Below are positions 23,895-26,983 of a stretch of DNA of 52,185 bases, one piece after another. Numbering within the stretch: the first letter of the stretch is position 1; every line of letters starts with the position of its first letter. The DNA is from an uncultured Candidatus Thioglobus sp. (GTDB lineage Bacteria; Pseudomonadota; Gammaproteobacteria; PS1; Pseudothioglobaceae), in NCBI GenBank assembly GCA_000205985.2, contig GG729986.1, positions 1-52,185 of the forward strand. Direction: 5' to 3'. Under the pieces are notes generated by a model. That model was not told where the DNA came from, did not search any database, and was given only the letters and a program-made list of their open reading frames with translations. The position numbers and the translations under genes were made by a program.

Positions 23895-24764
23895 TTATTT
23901 TAATCCACTCAGCCAAGTGTCAATTGTTTTAACCAGCACTTGAGAACTGCCATTTTCCTTGTAGTAATGATCTGCACCTTTAATGACCATCTGCGCATTC
24001 TTGGCATTAGCAGAAACATCCATCAAATCTTGCCTAGACTCTGAAAGTCGAACCACTCCTGGAAAATCATTCTCACCAAACACGTCCAACACTGGTGTCA
24101 ACATCTTATCAAGTGGAAAAGGTTTGATCAATTTTTGCTTGTAATCCGTTGCACCCATGCCTACGCCCACGTAGGCTGATATTTTAGAATCACCGTATTT
24201 ATCAATGTAACTCATCGACATGTGCGCACCGCAACCATGGCCAATTAAAATAATATTATCAACCCCACGTTGTTTGTAAAAATCAATTGCCGCTTCAATG
24301 CGCTCATGTGCATAAGGAAAAATCGGCACGTAATCGTAATATTTTGCTTTTTTGTCCAATACCGGCATTTGTACTGATAATGTATGCCAGCCTTTTTCCG
24401 CTAAACCAACCCTAAGTGGTTTAATGGTGCTTGACCAATTGGCATGATATCCACGAGAATGTAGAAGGACAACCCCGCCTTTAGGTGTATCGGCATCCGC
24501 TTCCATGAAAATACTAAATACTTCCCTGTCTTTTGATAATGGCAAAAATTCAACGTCACCATCCATCACAGATTCTTCAATCTCCCCCACCATACGGTCT
24601 TCTCTATCGAAATCGGGCTCTACTCCAATGAACTCGTTAAAAGAACGACGTAAACTATTAGGATCAAAATCACCAAAATTCGGCAATTCAGGCAAACCAA
24701 AAGGCAGCGCTAAAGAGGCTTGTGAAAACAACAAACCCATTATTAATATTAATCTACTCAACAT
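23895..24764 (-). CDS. DUF3530-type exported alpha/beta hydrolase-fold protein
   Basis: 289 residues. Signal peptide (MLSRLILIMGLLFSQASLA), then an alpha/beta hydrolase fold: VVLLHSRGYHANW (about 98-110) as oxyanion strand, nucleophile-elbow position IGHGCGAHMS (174-183), acid-strand VFGENDFPGV (228-237) and KGADHYY (262-268) as the His strand. At the elbow Ser is replaced by Gly, with Cys one position later, a pattern of the DUF3530 family that puts esterase activity in doubt. It is the last gene of the exported cluster and overlaps the Sel1 gene by 11 nt. Confidence 0.8.
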   Translation of the reverse strand: MLSRLILIMGLLFSQASLALPFGLPELPNFGDFDPNSLRRSFNEFIGVEPDFDREDRMVGEIEESVMDGDVEFLPLSKDREVFSIFMEADADTPKGGVVLLHSRGYHANWSSTIKPLRVGLAEKGWHTLSVQMPVLDKKAKYYDYVPIFPYAHERIEAAIDFYKQRGVDNIILIGHGCGAHMSMSYIDKYGDSKISAYVGVGMGATDYKQKLIKPFPLDKMLTPVLDVFGENDFPGVVRLSESRQDLMDVSANAKNAQMVIKGADHYYKENGSSQVLVKTIDTWLSGLK

Positions 24765-25296
24765 ATTCTCTCCTCAATTTATCCAGCGCCACTTGTGCAT
24801 CTGGATGGCCATTATTTTTCGCTCTAGTGAACCAAAAATAAGCGTGTTTAATGTCGGACTGTTCTAAGAACAACGATGCTAAATTAAACTGTGCGTATTC
24901 ATCTTCTTGATTAGCCGCTTTAAACCACCAATCATACGCCTTTTCTGTGTCTTTCTCCACCCCTGTGCCTCGATAATATAGCATGGCTAACTCGCTTTGA
25001 GCATAAGCAAGGCCTTGTTTCGCTGATTTTTCAAACCAAAAAAATGCTTTTTTCTCATCTTTAGGAGCGCCCAAAGCATGTAAATAGCTCAAGCCAATGT
25101 TGTTTTGCGCTGCTGCATGTCCTGCATCTGCTGCTTTTATCATCCATTTAAAGGCATCTGCATTACGACCTCTCTGTGAATAATCATAGCCAATCTTGTA
25201 CCAAGTATCGCTACGCTCATCAGCAGTAGCACTCAAATTTATTGTAAAAAAAAGGGATGCTATTAACACCCCTTTTATAACACTAATGTTTATCAA
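24754..25296 (-). CDS. Exported Sel1-repeat protein
   Basis: 180 residues: a signal peptide (residues 1-26, GVLIASLFFTINLSATA) and then four Sel1-type repeats of about 36 residues, for example AAQNNIGLSYLHALGAPKDE, YAQSELAMLYYRGTGVEKDT and YAQFNLASLFLEQSDIKHAY. Sel1 repeats form an alpha solenoid for protein contacts, so a periplasmic adaptor role is likely, partner unknown. It begins one base after the stop of rhodanese A and overlaps the DUF3530 gene, so the three are translationally linked. Confidence 0.85.
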   Translation of the reverse strand: MINISVIKGVLIASLFFTINLSATADERSDTWYKIGYDYSQRGRNADAFKWMIKAADAGHAAAQNNIGLSYLHALGAPKDEKKAFFWFEKSAKQGLAYAQSELAMLYYRGTGVEKDTEKAYDWWFKAANQEDEYAQFNLASLFLEQSDIKHAYFWFTRAKNNGHPDAQVALDKLRREYVE

Positions 25297-25297
25297 T

Positions 25298-25981
25298 TTA
25301 CTTTGTTGTTAAACCTAGTGATTTCCAAGCATTCATACCACCACGGTAGTATTTGATTTTATGCTCAGGGTAACCGATTGCTAACAATGCTCTGATTGAA
25401 GCTGGTGATTGACCACACCATGCACCATTACAGAAATTATAAATCGTCTTAGCATTACCAAAACCTAGTATGCCGTCTAAATCTTTAACACCGAATTTAT
25501 CAGTTAAGATTTCAACAACTGCCATTGGATCTTTAGCTAACGCCTTAGAATTCAACTTAGTAAATGGAACGTTGATTGCGTGTGGGATTGTGCCTTTCTT
25601 AACCCAACCCGGAGTACGTGCATCAACTACTAATAGTGTTTTATCGCCATTAGCAACATCACGTGCAGCATGGATCATATCAAGCTCTGTTACCATGTCA
25701 ACCTGTGAAGGTGCAAATGGATTGGTTGCATTGATACAGAACGGAGGACAAGGACGTGAAGTCTTTGCAAACGCAGGATCAATGGTATTTTTGTTGTCTG
25801 CATTACGTGAAATGCCTGCAACTTCTAAAACACCTTTAACAATTCCAACTGGCTTGCCTGCTTTTACTGCTGGCGCAGATGAAGTGTTATTCCAGTTAAA
25901 ACTAGAGTTTTGAAACGTTGCTGCTTGAGAACCTAAAGCAAACGTAGAAGCAACTGCTAATACAAATAATTTAATTTTCAT
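25298..25981 (-). CDS. Periplasmic rhodanese-like protein A
   Basis: 227 residues with a signal peptide (residues 1-20, cleavage after SQA). The rhodanese domain spans about 95-225: VVDARTPGWVKKGTIPHAINVPF, in parts LLVVDARTPGWVKKG and IPHAINVPF, an active loop CNGAWCGQSP (184-193) and YYRGGMNAWKSLG. A second cysteine pair, CPPFC (78-82), precedes the domain. The loop is longer than the usual CRxGxR and has two Cys. It may transfer sulfane sulfur in the periplasm; donor and acceptor are unknown. Differs from copy B by an extra 20-residue Asn/Ser-rich segment after the signal peptide. Shine-Dalgarno AGGAG present, directly after a terminator-like hairpin. Confidence 0.9.
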   Translation of the reverse strand: MKIKLFVLAVASTFALGSQAATFQNSSFNWNNTSSAPAVKAGKPVGIVKGVLEVAGISRNADNKNTIDPAFAKTSRPCPPFCINATNPFAPSQVDMVTELDMIHAARDVANGDKTLLVVDARTPGWVKKGTIPHAINVPFTKLNSKALAKDPMAVVEILTDKFGVKDLDGILGFGNAKTIYNFCNGAWCGQSPASIRALLAIGYPEHKIKYYRGGMNAWKSLGLTTK

Positions 25982-25996
25982 AATAATCTCCTAGAT

Positions 25997-26026
25997 AAAA
26001 AAGCACTTAACTAGTAAGTGCTTTTT
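25997..26026 (-). terminator. Terminator-like hairpin between rhodanese B and A
   Basis: AAAAGCACTTA pairs with TAAGTGCTTTT (25999-26009 with 26015-26025) around a 5-nt loop, with six U residues on the minus strand. It is 10 nt after the rhodanese B stop, and its U run ends 5 nt before the AGGAG of rhodanese A, so copy A is expressed by read-through or by its own promoter overlapping the hairpin. Confidence 0.75.
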
Positions 26027-26035
26027 ATGAATCAA

Positions 26036-26662
26036 TTACTTAGTTGTTAAGCCTAAAGATTTCCAAGCGTTCATACCACCACGGTAGTATTTGATCTTGC
26101 TTTCAGGGTAACCGATTGCTAACAATGCTCTGATTGAAGCTGGTGATTGACCACACCATGCACCATTACAGAAATTATAAATCGTCTTAGCATTACCAAA
26201 ACCTAGTATGCCGTCTAAATCTTTAACACCGAATTTATCAGTTAAGATTTCAACAACTGCCATTGGATCTTTAGCTAACGCCTTAGAATTCAACTTAGTA
26301 AATGGAACGTTGATTGCGTGTGGGATTGTGCCTTTCTTAACCCAACCCGGAGTACGTGCATCAACCACGAGTACCGATGTGTCACCATTGGCTGAATCAC
26401 GCGCAGCATGGATAACATCTAACTCTGTTACTGTTTCAACTTTTGCAGGTGCAAATGGATTGGTTGCATTGATACAGAACGGAGGACAAGGACGTGAAGT
26501 CTTTGCGAACGCAGGATCAATGGTTGCTTTGTTATCTTGATTACGAGAAATACCCGCAACTTCCATAACGCCTTTAACGATACCAACTGGCTTAGCCGTT
26601 ACAGCCGTTGATGCTAAGAATGCTACTGTTGCAGCACTTACTACTAATGTTTGAAGTTTCAT
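26036..26662 (-). CDS. Periplasmic rhodanese-like protein B
   Basis: 208 residues, tandem paralogue of protein A. Signal peptide residues 1-23 (cleavage after VTA), CPPFC at 59-63, active loop CNGAWCGQSP at 165-174, and a C-terminus almost identical to A. The two genes share a 262-bp tract with no difference (25366-25627 and 26104-26365), while the signal peptides and the segment around residues 72-100 have diverged, as expected for gene conversion between old duplicates. A strong Shine-Dalgarno (AGGAGAG) follows a terminator-like hairpin. Confidence 0.9.
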   Translation of the reverse strand: MKLQTLVVSAATVAFLASTAVTAKPVGIVKGVMEVAGISRNQDNKATIDPAFAKTSRPCPPFCINATNPFAPAKVETVTELDVIHAARDSANGDTSVLVVDARTPGWVKKGTIPHAINVPFTKLNSKALAKDPMAVVEILTDKFGVKDLDGILGFGNAKTIYNFCNGAWCGQSPASIRALLAIGYPESKIKYYRGGMNAWKSLGLTTK

Positions 26663-26682
26663 ACTTCTCTCCTCTTATATAT

Positions 26683-26706
26683 AAAAAAATGACTCATCAT
26701 TGAGTC
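26683..26706 (-). terminator. Terminator-like hairpin before rhodanese B
   Basis: GACTCA (26691-26696) pairs with TGAGTC (26701-26706) around a 4-nt loop, with seven U residues on the minus strand. It lies 50 nt after the small Cys-containing gene and about 20 nt before the rhodanese B start, directly ahead of its ribosome binding site. A run of nine C residues (26718-26726) lies just upstream. Confidence 0.65.
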
Positions 26707-26755
26707 TTTATTCATAGCCCCCCCCCAAGTAGACAGAGACCAAAAATTCTTGTTG

Positions 26756-26983
26756 TTAATCGCAGCTTGGCTCTTCTTCCAAATTGTGATTAGCGAAATA
26801 ATCCATTACACATTCTTCTTTCTCGTCATCTTCTTTACCGTCACAAGAATCTTGTGCAGCATCACGAATGACTTGTTTTTGTGCTTCTGTTGCATTAGCC
26901 TCCAAAGGCTTGACACCGTCCGTTGCATTTGCAAAAACATTAAAACTTAATAAAAATCCAAATAATATTGCTAGCTTCTTCAC
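26756..26983 (-). CDS. Small acidic exported protein with three cysteines
   Basis: 75 residues. Signal peptide (residues 1-20, cleavage after FANA), then a short acidic protein with Cys at 47, 58 and 74 (DSCDGKEDDEKEECV and a final PSCD). The start is GTG, fixed by a strong Shine-Dalgarno (AGGAGAGGAG). I do not recognise the family. It is the first gene of the minus-strand exported cluster and, being secreted and Cys-bearing, could be a thiol partner of the rhodaneses; that is inference only. Confidence 0.7.
   Translation of the reverse strand: MKKLAILFGFLLSFNVFANATDGVKPLEANATEAQKQVIRDAAQDSCDGKEDDEKEECVMDYFANHNLEEEPSCD

What the first reader, a model, noticed from the sequence alone, without database searches (positions are those of the whole stretch)
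23895..26983. Five-gene exported cluster around tandem rhodaneses: candidate uncharacterised periplasmic sulfur system
All five consecutive minus-strand genes encode signal peptides: a small acidic protein with three Cys, two rhodaneses with CPPFC and CNGAWC pairs, a Sel1-repeat solenoid and a DUF3530 hydrolase-fold protein. The last three genes are linked by a 1-nt gap and an 11-nt overlap. The combination suggests a periplasmic path that accepts sulfane sulfur or oxidises thiols, with Sel1 as scaffold. It is not a known sox, dsr or tus set. Co-function is inferred from layout alone.
Basis: partly seen in the sequence, partly recalled or inferred. Interest (0 to 1): 0.65.

Follow-up and report, generated by a model that had tools for sequence, protein, structure and literature searches.

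The report
Duplicated SoxL-type sulfur-transfer gene cluster
In SUP05-clade sulfur-oxidising marine bacteria, two nearly identical exported sulfur-handling enzymes (relatives of SoxL, a known helper of thiosulfate oxidation) sit in a conserved gene cluster with three accessory proteins, and several independent signs tie them to the cell's Sox pathway.

Summary
Five minus-strand ORFs with signal-peptide-like N-termini lie at 23895-26983 with the stated gaps, conserved across dozens of Thioglobaceae (SUP05 clade) genomes. The reading as a separate, unknown periplasmic sulfur system is only partly right.

The rhodaneses are homologs of sox-operon rhodaneses (SoxL-type). Relatives sit in sox clusters in five unrelated families, once as soxX-soxA-soxK-rhodanese, twice fused to SoxK. 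Among 369 Gammaproteobacteria, 84 of 92 genomes with the rhodanese also have soxA. The host has Sox without SoxCD, plus rDsr.

New details: (1) the copies share a converted catalytic half (263 identical nt) but keep different N-termini; (2) rhod2's N-terminal motif occurs only once more in the genome, in SoxK; (3) DUF3530 adjoins such a rhodanese in three other families, once in a sox cluster, but here its catalytic serine is glycine; (4) terminator-like hairpins separate the genes, one with compensatory changes inside sel1, so this is no simple operon; (5) host-restricted relatives lose small, rhodanese and sel1 but mostly keep DUF3530.

Best reading: a duplicated, relocated SoxL module. Roles of the three-Cys protein, Sel1 and DUF3530 are inferred.

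The parts
26756..26983 (-). Small exported acidic protein, 75 aa, three invariant Cys (47, 58, 74), conserved C-terminus HNLEEEPSCD; found only in Thioglobaceae
   Evidence: no family or fold match
26691..26706 (-). Terminator-like hairpin between small and rhod1, similar hairpin at this place in most relatives compared
   Evidence: sequences of relatives
26036..26662 (-). rhod1: SoxL-type rhodanese, 208 aa, plain signal peptide, CPPFC (Cys 59, 63) and CNGAWC (Cys 165, 170)
   Evidence: sox-linked homologs
26103..26365 (-). 263-nt tract identical to rhod2 25365-25627: gene-conversion tract over the catalytic half
   Evidence: copies group by genome in the tree
25996..26026 (-). Terminator-like hairpin AGCACTTACTAGTTAAGTGCT plus T-run between rhod1 and rhod2 (approximate limits), present with changed stem sequences in many relatives
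   Evidence: sequence; relatives; not counted statistically
25298..25981 (-). rhod2: second SoxL-type rhodanese, 227 aa, N-terminal extension before the shared domain
25878..25900 (-). FNWNNTSS segment of the rhod2 N-terminus; the pattern's only other hit in the genome is the N-terminus of SoxK (HNWNAGSS, G000:C72:17214-17236)
25246..25272 (-). Terminator-like hairpin GGGGTGTT-AAT-AGCATCCC plus T8 inside the sel1 signal-peptide codons (approximate limits)
   Evidence: 97.8% pairing, 21 double-change cells; 39 of 20,000 synonymous versions as stable
24754..25296 (-). Sel1-repeat protein, 180 aa, TTG start, no Cys
23895..24764 (-). DUF3530 alpha/beta-hydrolase-fold protein, 289 aa; nucleophile elbow GHGCG (Ser replaced by Gly), Asp and His positions kept
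   Evidence: homologs beside SoxL-type rhodaneses in L138, L197, L201

Best explanation
The core is a duplicated, relocated SoxL module serving a Sox system that lacks SoxCD. Shown by sequence: both rhodaneses belong to the protein family encoded in sox operons (including the soxX-soxA-soxK-rhodanese order and SoxK-rhodanese fusions); they occur where Sox occurs; the host has soxY, Z, A, K and soxB but no detectable soxC; rhod2 shares an N-terminal motif with SoxK. Inferred: the first Cys of CNGAWC accepts sulfane sulfur from the SoxY carrier (or from thiosulfate), freeing SoxYZ for another round; the second Cys and the CPPFC pair help release the sulfur as polysulfide or to a thiol carrier, from where it feeds zero-valent sulfur and rDsr. 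The two copies keep one catalytic domain, homogenised by gene conversion, but different N-terminal addresses: rhod1 soluble, rhod2 tagged like SoxK (or lipid-anchored in some mussel-symbiont-type genomes). More weakly inferred: the three-Cys protein is a thiol or sulfur-carrier partner whose last Cys sits on a flexible tail; DUF3530, without its catalytic serine, is a binding or assembly protein made with Sel1 at a lower level by read-through of the hairpin.
For: Sox-operon homologs in five unrelated families: L079/L139, L134/L135 (SoxK fusion; SAXB model E 2e-24, slightly under its cut-off), L136, L137, L138. 84 of 92 genomes with the rhodanese have soxA, odds ratio 26, p about 1e-27 (not corrected for phylogeny). 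Within the family, genera g3 and g9 without dsrA or true soxB also lack the rhodanese. No soxC over cut-off in the family. Host sox genes at C72 and C62. Shared SoxK/rhod2 motif, two hits in 1.17 Mb and none for the reversed control, and BLAST of SoxK finds the rhod2 N-terminus in G016, G017 and G032. Conversion tract. DUF3530-rhodanese-soxXYZA in L138. Literature: SoxL proposed to take sulfane sulfur off SoxY where SoxCD is missing (PMC3368242); in a Thiodubiliella symbiont two rhodanese-like genes rank second and third in transcription, above soxAX and soxYZ (PMC10999363), not shown to be this pair.
Against: Not in the sox operon of the host. Most homologs in the class are not sox-linked; many lie between mfd and lol genes. 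L079 and L139 have both SoxCD and the rhodanese, so it is not simply a substitute for SoxCD. Several host-restricted genomes keep dsr and sox but lack or have lost the rhodanese, so it is not essential to the pathway. Direct comparison with Alvin_2171 was not possible. The NWN pattern was designed after seeing both sequences.
Confidence: 0.6

Rival explanations
1. The rhodaneses are Sox-related, but small, Sel1 and DUF3530 are merely neighbours: a stable genome block in a family of small genomes, with Sel1-DUF3530 in an unrelated envelope role.
For: Whole block including asnB, rnhA, DUF455 and rsuA is syntenic. DUF3530 stays open where rhodanese and sel1 decay. Hairpins separate the genes. Pseudomonas DUF3530 genes neighbour lptD (PMC11878206).
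Against: DUF3530 adjoins SoxL-type rhodaneses in three other families, once inside a sox cluster, and a second DUF3530 paralog sits near rhodanese paralogs in G014 and, more loosely, G035. Sel1 and DUF3530 orthologs are absent from the non-sulfur genera g3 and g9.
Confidence: 0.3
2. The rhodaneses are plain periplasmic thiosulfate sulfurtransferases that split thiosulfate to sulfite and a persulfide, independent of SoxYZ.
For: Rhodanese fold; this role is suggested for the two top-transcribed rhodaneses of a Thiodubiliella symbiont (PMC10999363).
Against: Repeated sox-operon location and SoxK fusion and the SoxK-like tag point to Sox partners rather than free thiosulfate.
Confidence: 0.2
3. 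The paired Cys make the rhodaneses thiol-disulfide oxidoreductases (protein-thiol oxidation or repair), not sulfur-transfer enzymes.
For: Two conserved Cys pairs in most homologs; weak similarity to the rhodanese/DsbD-like TsoB model (E 0.005).
Against: TsoB and PQQ_CXXCW matches are far below cut-off (15 of 805 and 14 of 128 bits). The third paralog keeps CNGxWC but lacks CPPFC. No Dsb-type gene in the cluster.
Confidence: 0.07

Closest known systems
SoxL of Allochromatium vinosum (Alvin_2171; soxXAKL)
   Same: Exported rhodanese of a Sox system without SoxCD; homologs of the window proteins occupy the same place behind soxX-A-K in L136
   Different: Here not in the sox operon, duplicated in tandem, with a SoxK-like tag on one copy and with small, Sel1 and DUF3530 genes beside it; direct sequence comparison with Alvin_2171 not possible
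SoxK / SAXB (SoxXA-binding protein, NF052674)
   Same: Family-specific N-terminal HNWN segment after the signal peptide is shared with rhod2; SoxK is fused to the homologous rhodanese in L134 and L135
   Different: The rest of the protein is unrelated to rhodanese
DUF3530 (PF12048)
   Same: 84 bits against a cut-off of 29.8; described as lacking a catalytic triad (PMC11878206)
   Different: Here linked to SoxL-type rhodaneses rather than lptD; Ser of the elbow replaced by Gly while Asp and His positions remain
Cytoplasmic Rhd-TusA-DsrE2 relay
   Same: Rhodanese passing sulfane sulfur towards rDsr
   Different: The window rhodaneses have signal peptides and no tusA or dsrE neighbours

Membership tests
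SoxL | Rhodanese domain | tested here: met
   PF00581, 45 bits against cut-off 22; fold match
SoxL | Exported (signal peptide) | tested here: inconclusive
   Clear by inspection for both copies and conserved in relatives; no predictor available
SoxL | Homologous to rhodaneses encoded in sox operons | tested here: met
   46% identity to the sox-operon member L079; L134-L139; one tree
SoxL | Encoded directly behind soxXAK in the same genome | tested here: not met
   Host sox genes are on C72 and C62, the cluster on C51. Not filed as the SoxL gene itself, but as SoxL-type
SoxL | Organism has Sox without SoxCD | tested here: met
   soxA and soxB found, no soxC in any Thioglobaceae over cut-off; host genome 85.5% complete
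SoxL | Speeds thiosulfate use by SoxYZ in vitro without more electrons | not testable with these tools
   Needs protein; feature recalled from the work of Welte and colleagues (2009), cited in PMC10952691
SoxL | Sequence similarity to Alvin_2171 itself | not tested
DUF3530 (PF12048) | Score over the family cut-off | tested here: met
   84.1 against 29.8 bits
Serine hydrolase of the alpha/beta fold | Nucleophile Ser in the G/A-x-S-x-G elbow | tested here: not met
   HGCG in the window and about 30 family sequences; HSC[GS] in L138, L197, L201
TsoB / PQQ_CXXCW rhodanese-like proteins | Score over the curated cut-off | tested here: not met
   15 of 805 and 14 of 128 bits

The most novel reading that the evidence does not exclude
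SUP05 bacteria run an expanded SoxL machine: two copies of one sulfurtransferase, one free and one addressed to the SoxXAK complex by a SoxK-like N-terminal tag, handing sulfur to a new small carrier whose reactive Cys sits on a C-terminal tail (as in SoxY or DsrC in principle), with a catalytically dead hydrolase-fold protein as assembly factor and hairpins that set falling expression along the cluster.
Probability: 0.2. Interest if true: 0.8.

Novelty: new variant of a known kind. Interest (0 to 1): 0.56.

Why it matters
SUP05/Thioglobaceae are major sulfur oxidisers of oxygen-poor oceans and deep-sea symbioses. How sulfane sulfur leaves SoxYZ when SoxCD is missing is an open step. A conserved, duplicated SoxL-type pair with named neighbours makes that step directly testable, and could explain the very high rhodanese transcription reported in a Thiodubiliella symbiont (PMC10999363).

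Tried and rejected
PDB sequence search gave only weak rhodanese hits. The predicted small protein had no fold match. All-against-all neighbour clustering of class-wide loci mostly showed housekeeping synteny (mfd, lolCDE) and antisense frames; sox is the meaningful link but only in a minority of loci. Sel1 genes near rhodaneses in L082, L084 and L205 were judged uninformative, since Sel1 repeats are common. A partner protein upstream of rhodaneses in L084-L086 and L215 is a different association. The ungapped paralog/ortholog comparison is unreliable for L011, L023-L025 and L027 because of indels; the tree in the same call, where copies group by genome, is the better evidence for concerted evolution. 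The papers on SUP05 that name rhodaneses do not describe this cluster.

Full report
Observation. The five ORFs and their spacing are as described. Pfam supports rhodanese, Sel1 and DUF3530; the small protein is unknown to Pfam and NCBIfam. The genome is 1.17 Mb in 92 contigs, 85.5% complete; the nearest named relatives are Candidatus Thioglobus, Ruthturnera, Thiodubiliella and Bathymodiolus thiotrophic symbionts.

Conservation. In loci from the family the order asnB-rnhA-small-rhod1-(rhod2)-sel1-DUF3530, then convergent DUF455-rsuA, recurs with few exceptions. Because the housekeeping flanks are conserved too, this alone is weak evidence of co-function. Some genomes have one rhodanese only (for example L006, L008, L010). 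The small protein is found only in this family (40 of 115 genomes searched); the close sel1 and DUF3530 orthologs follow the rhodanese. Genera g3 and g9, which lack dsrA and a SoxB above cut-off, lack the rhodanese. In genus g2, small, rhodanese and sel1 decay to different degrees (L098-L101) while DUF3530 stays open in L098, L099 and L100. That separates DUF3530 from the rest.

What the rhodaneses are. Outside the family, homologs lie in sox clusters: L079 and L139 (soxC-D-X-Y-Z-A-soxK-like-rhodanese-soxB), L136 (soxX-A-K-rhodanese, the anatomy reported for Allochromatium soxXAKL in PMC3368242), L134 and L135 (SoxK fused to the rhodanese), L137 (soxA-Y-Z-rhodanese beside an fccB-like gene) and L138 (DUF3530-rhodanese-soxX-Y-Z-A). 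Across 369 class genomes, 84 of 92 with the rhodanese have soxA, odds ratio 26, p about 1e-27, not corrected for phylogeny. soxC over cut-off is absent from all Thioglobaceae searched. In the tree, sox-linked members are scattered, so sox linkage is a recurring state of one family rather than a subgroup. Most homologs in the class are not sox-linked; many lie between mfd and lol genes.

Two copies. The window copies share 263 identical nt, while 49 of the other 292 aligned sites differ. Copies of one genome group together for six of the eight genomes in the tree, which indicates repeated conversion. N-termini stay different: rhod1 has a plain signal peptide; rhod2 carries an HNWN-type segment or, in several mussel-symbiont-type genomes, a lipobox. 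A similar segment follows the signal peptide of SoxK in most of the family. A degenerate pattern for it hits the host genome exactly twice, in rhod2 and soxK, with no hit of the reversed control, and BLAST with SoxK independently finds the rhod2 N-terminus in three relatives. The pattern was designed after seeing both sequences, so the count describes uniqueness and is not a blind test.

Partners. The small protein has three invariant Cys and the C-terminus HNLEEEPSCD; the model is a two-helix hairpin with a loose tail (pTM 0.61) without structural relatives. DUF3530 in this clade has HGCG where homologs next to SoxL-type rhodaneses elsewhere have HSC[GS]; the Asp and His positions are kept. 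A survey also describes DUF3530 as lacking a triad (PMC11878206). DUF3530 adjoins a SoxL-type rhodanese in L138, L197 and L201, 3 of roughly 53 loci outside the family.

Transcription. Terminator-like hairpins lie after small, after rhod1 and just after rhod2, the last inside the sel1 signal-peptide codons. For the last, 97.8% of cells pair over 29 distinct sequences, with 21 double-change cells against 4.3 in shuffles, and sliding the partner destroys it. In the window itself only 39 of 20,000 synonymous versions fold as well. The consensus scanner listed only the first hairpin on this strand, probably because the other stems run into their own A and T tracts. Whether they terminate, attenuate or protect RNA is unknown.

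Verdict. A duplicated SoxL-type module of the Sox pathway, with one supported neighbour association (DUF3530), one lineage-specific Cys protein and one Sel1 protein of untested role. Shown by sequence: homology, context, co-occurrence, conversion, motif sharing, hairpins. Inferred: sulfur transfer from SoxYZ, the carrier role of the small protein, non-catalytic DUF3530.

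Noticed in passing
L216 (G017:C39:1-3500) and L217 (G035:C43:46500-51500): A SoxK-like domain is fused to the C-terminus of what reads as CcoP, the cytochrome c subunit of the cbb3 oxidase; similar long frames in G001, G010, G014, G023, G032 and G040. It could bring SoxXA to the terminal oxidase.
   Followed up: partly
L134:4236-5198 and L135:4959-5930: SoxK and the SoxL-type rhodanese form one fused protein of about 320 aa behind soxX-soxA.
   Followed up: partly
G000:C20:1423-2954 (L093), also L091, L092, L102: A second DUF3530 paralog, with catalytic Ser kept, overlaps a TauE/SafE-type transporter gene; in G014 a further rhodanese paralog lies close by.
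   Followed up: partly
G000:C25:3919-4608 (L089): A third rhodanese paralog, about 50% identical over the matched part, lacking CPPFC, among housekeeping genes.
   Followed up: partly
L084, L085, L086, L215: A conserved exported protein of unknown function lies directly upstream of a SoxL-type rhodanese.
   Followed up: no
L049:8345-8584: A second copy of the three-Cys small gene lies just beyond DUF3530 on the opposite strand.
   Followed up: no
L098-L101 (genus g2): Stepwise decay of small, rhodanese and sel1 with DUF3530 mostly intact, including a remnant that joins the rhod1 signal peptide to the sel1 end in L100.
   Followed up: partly
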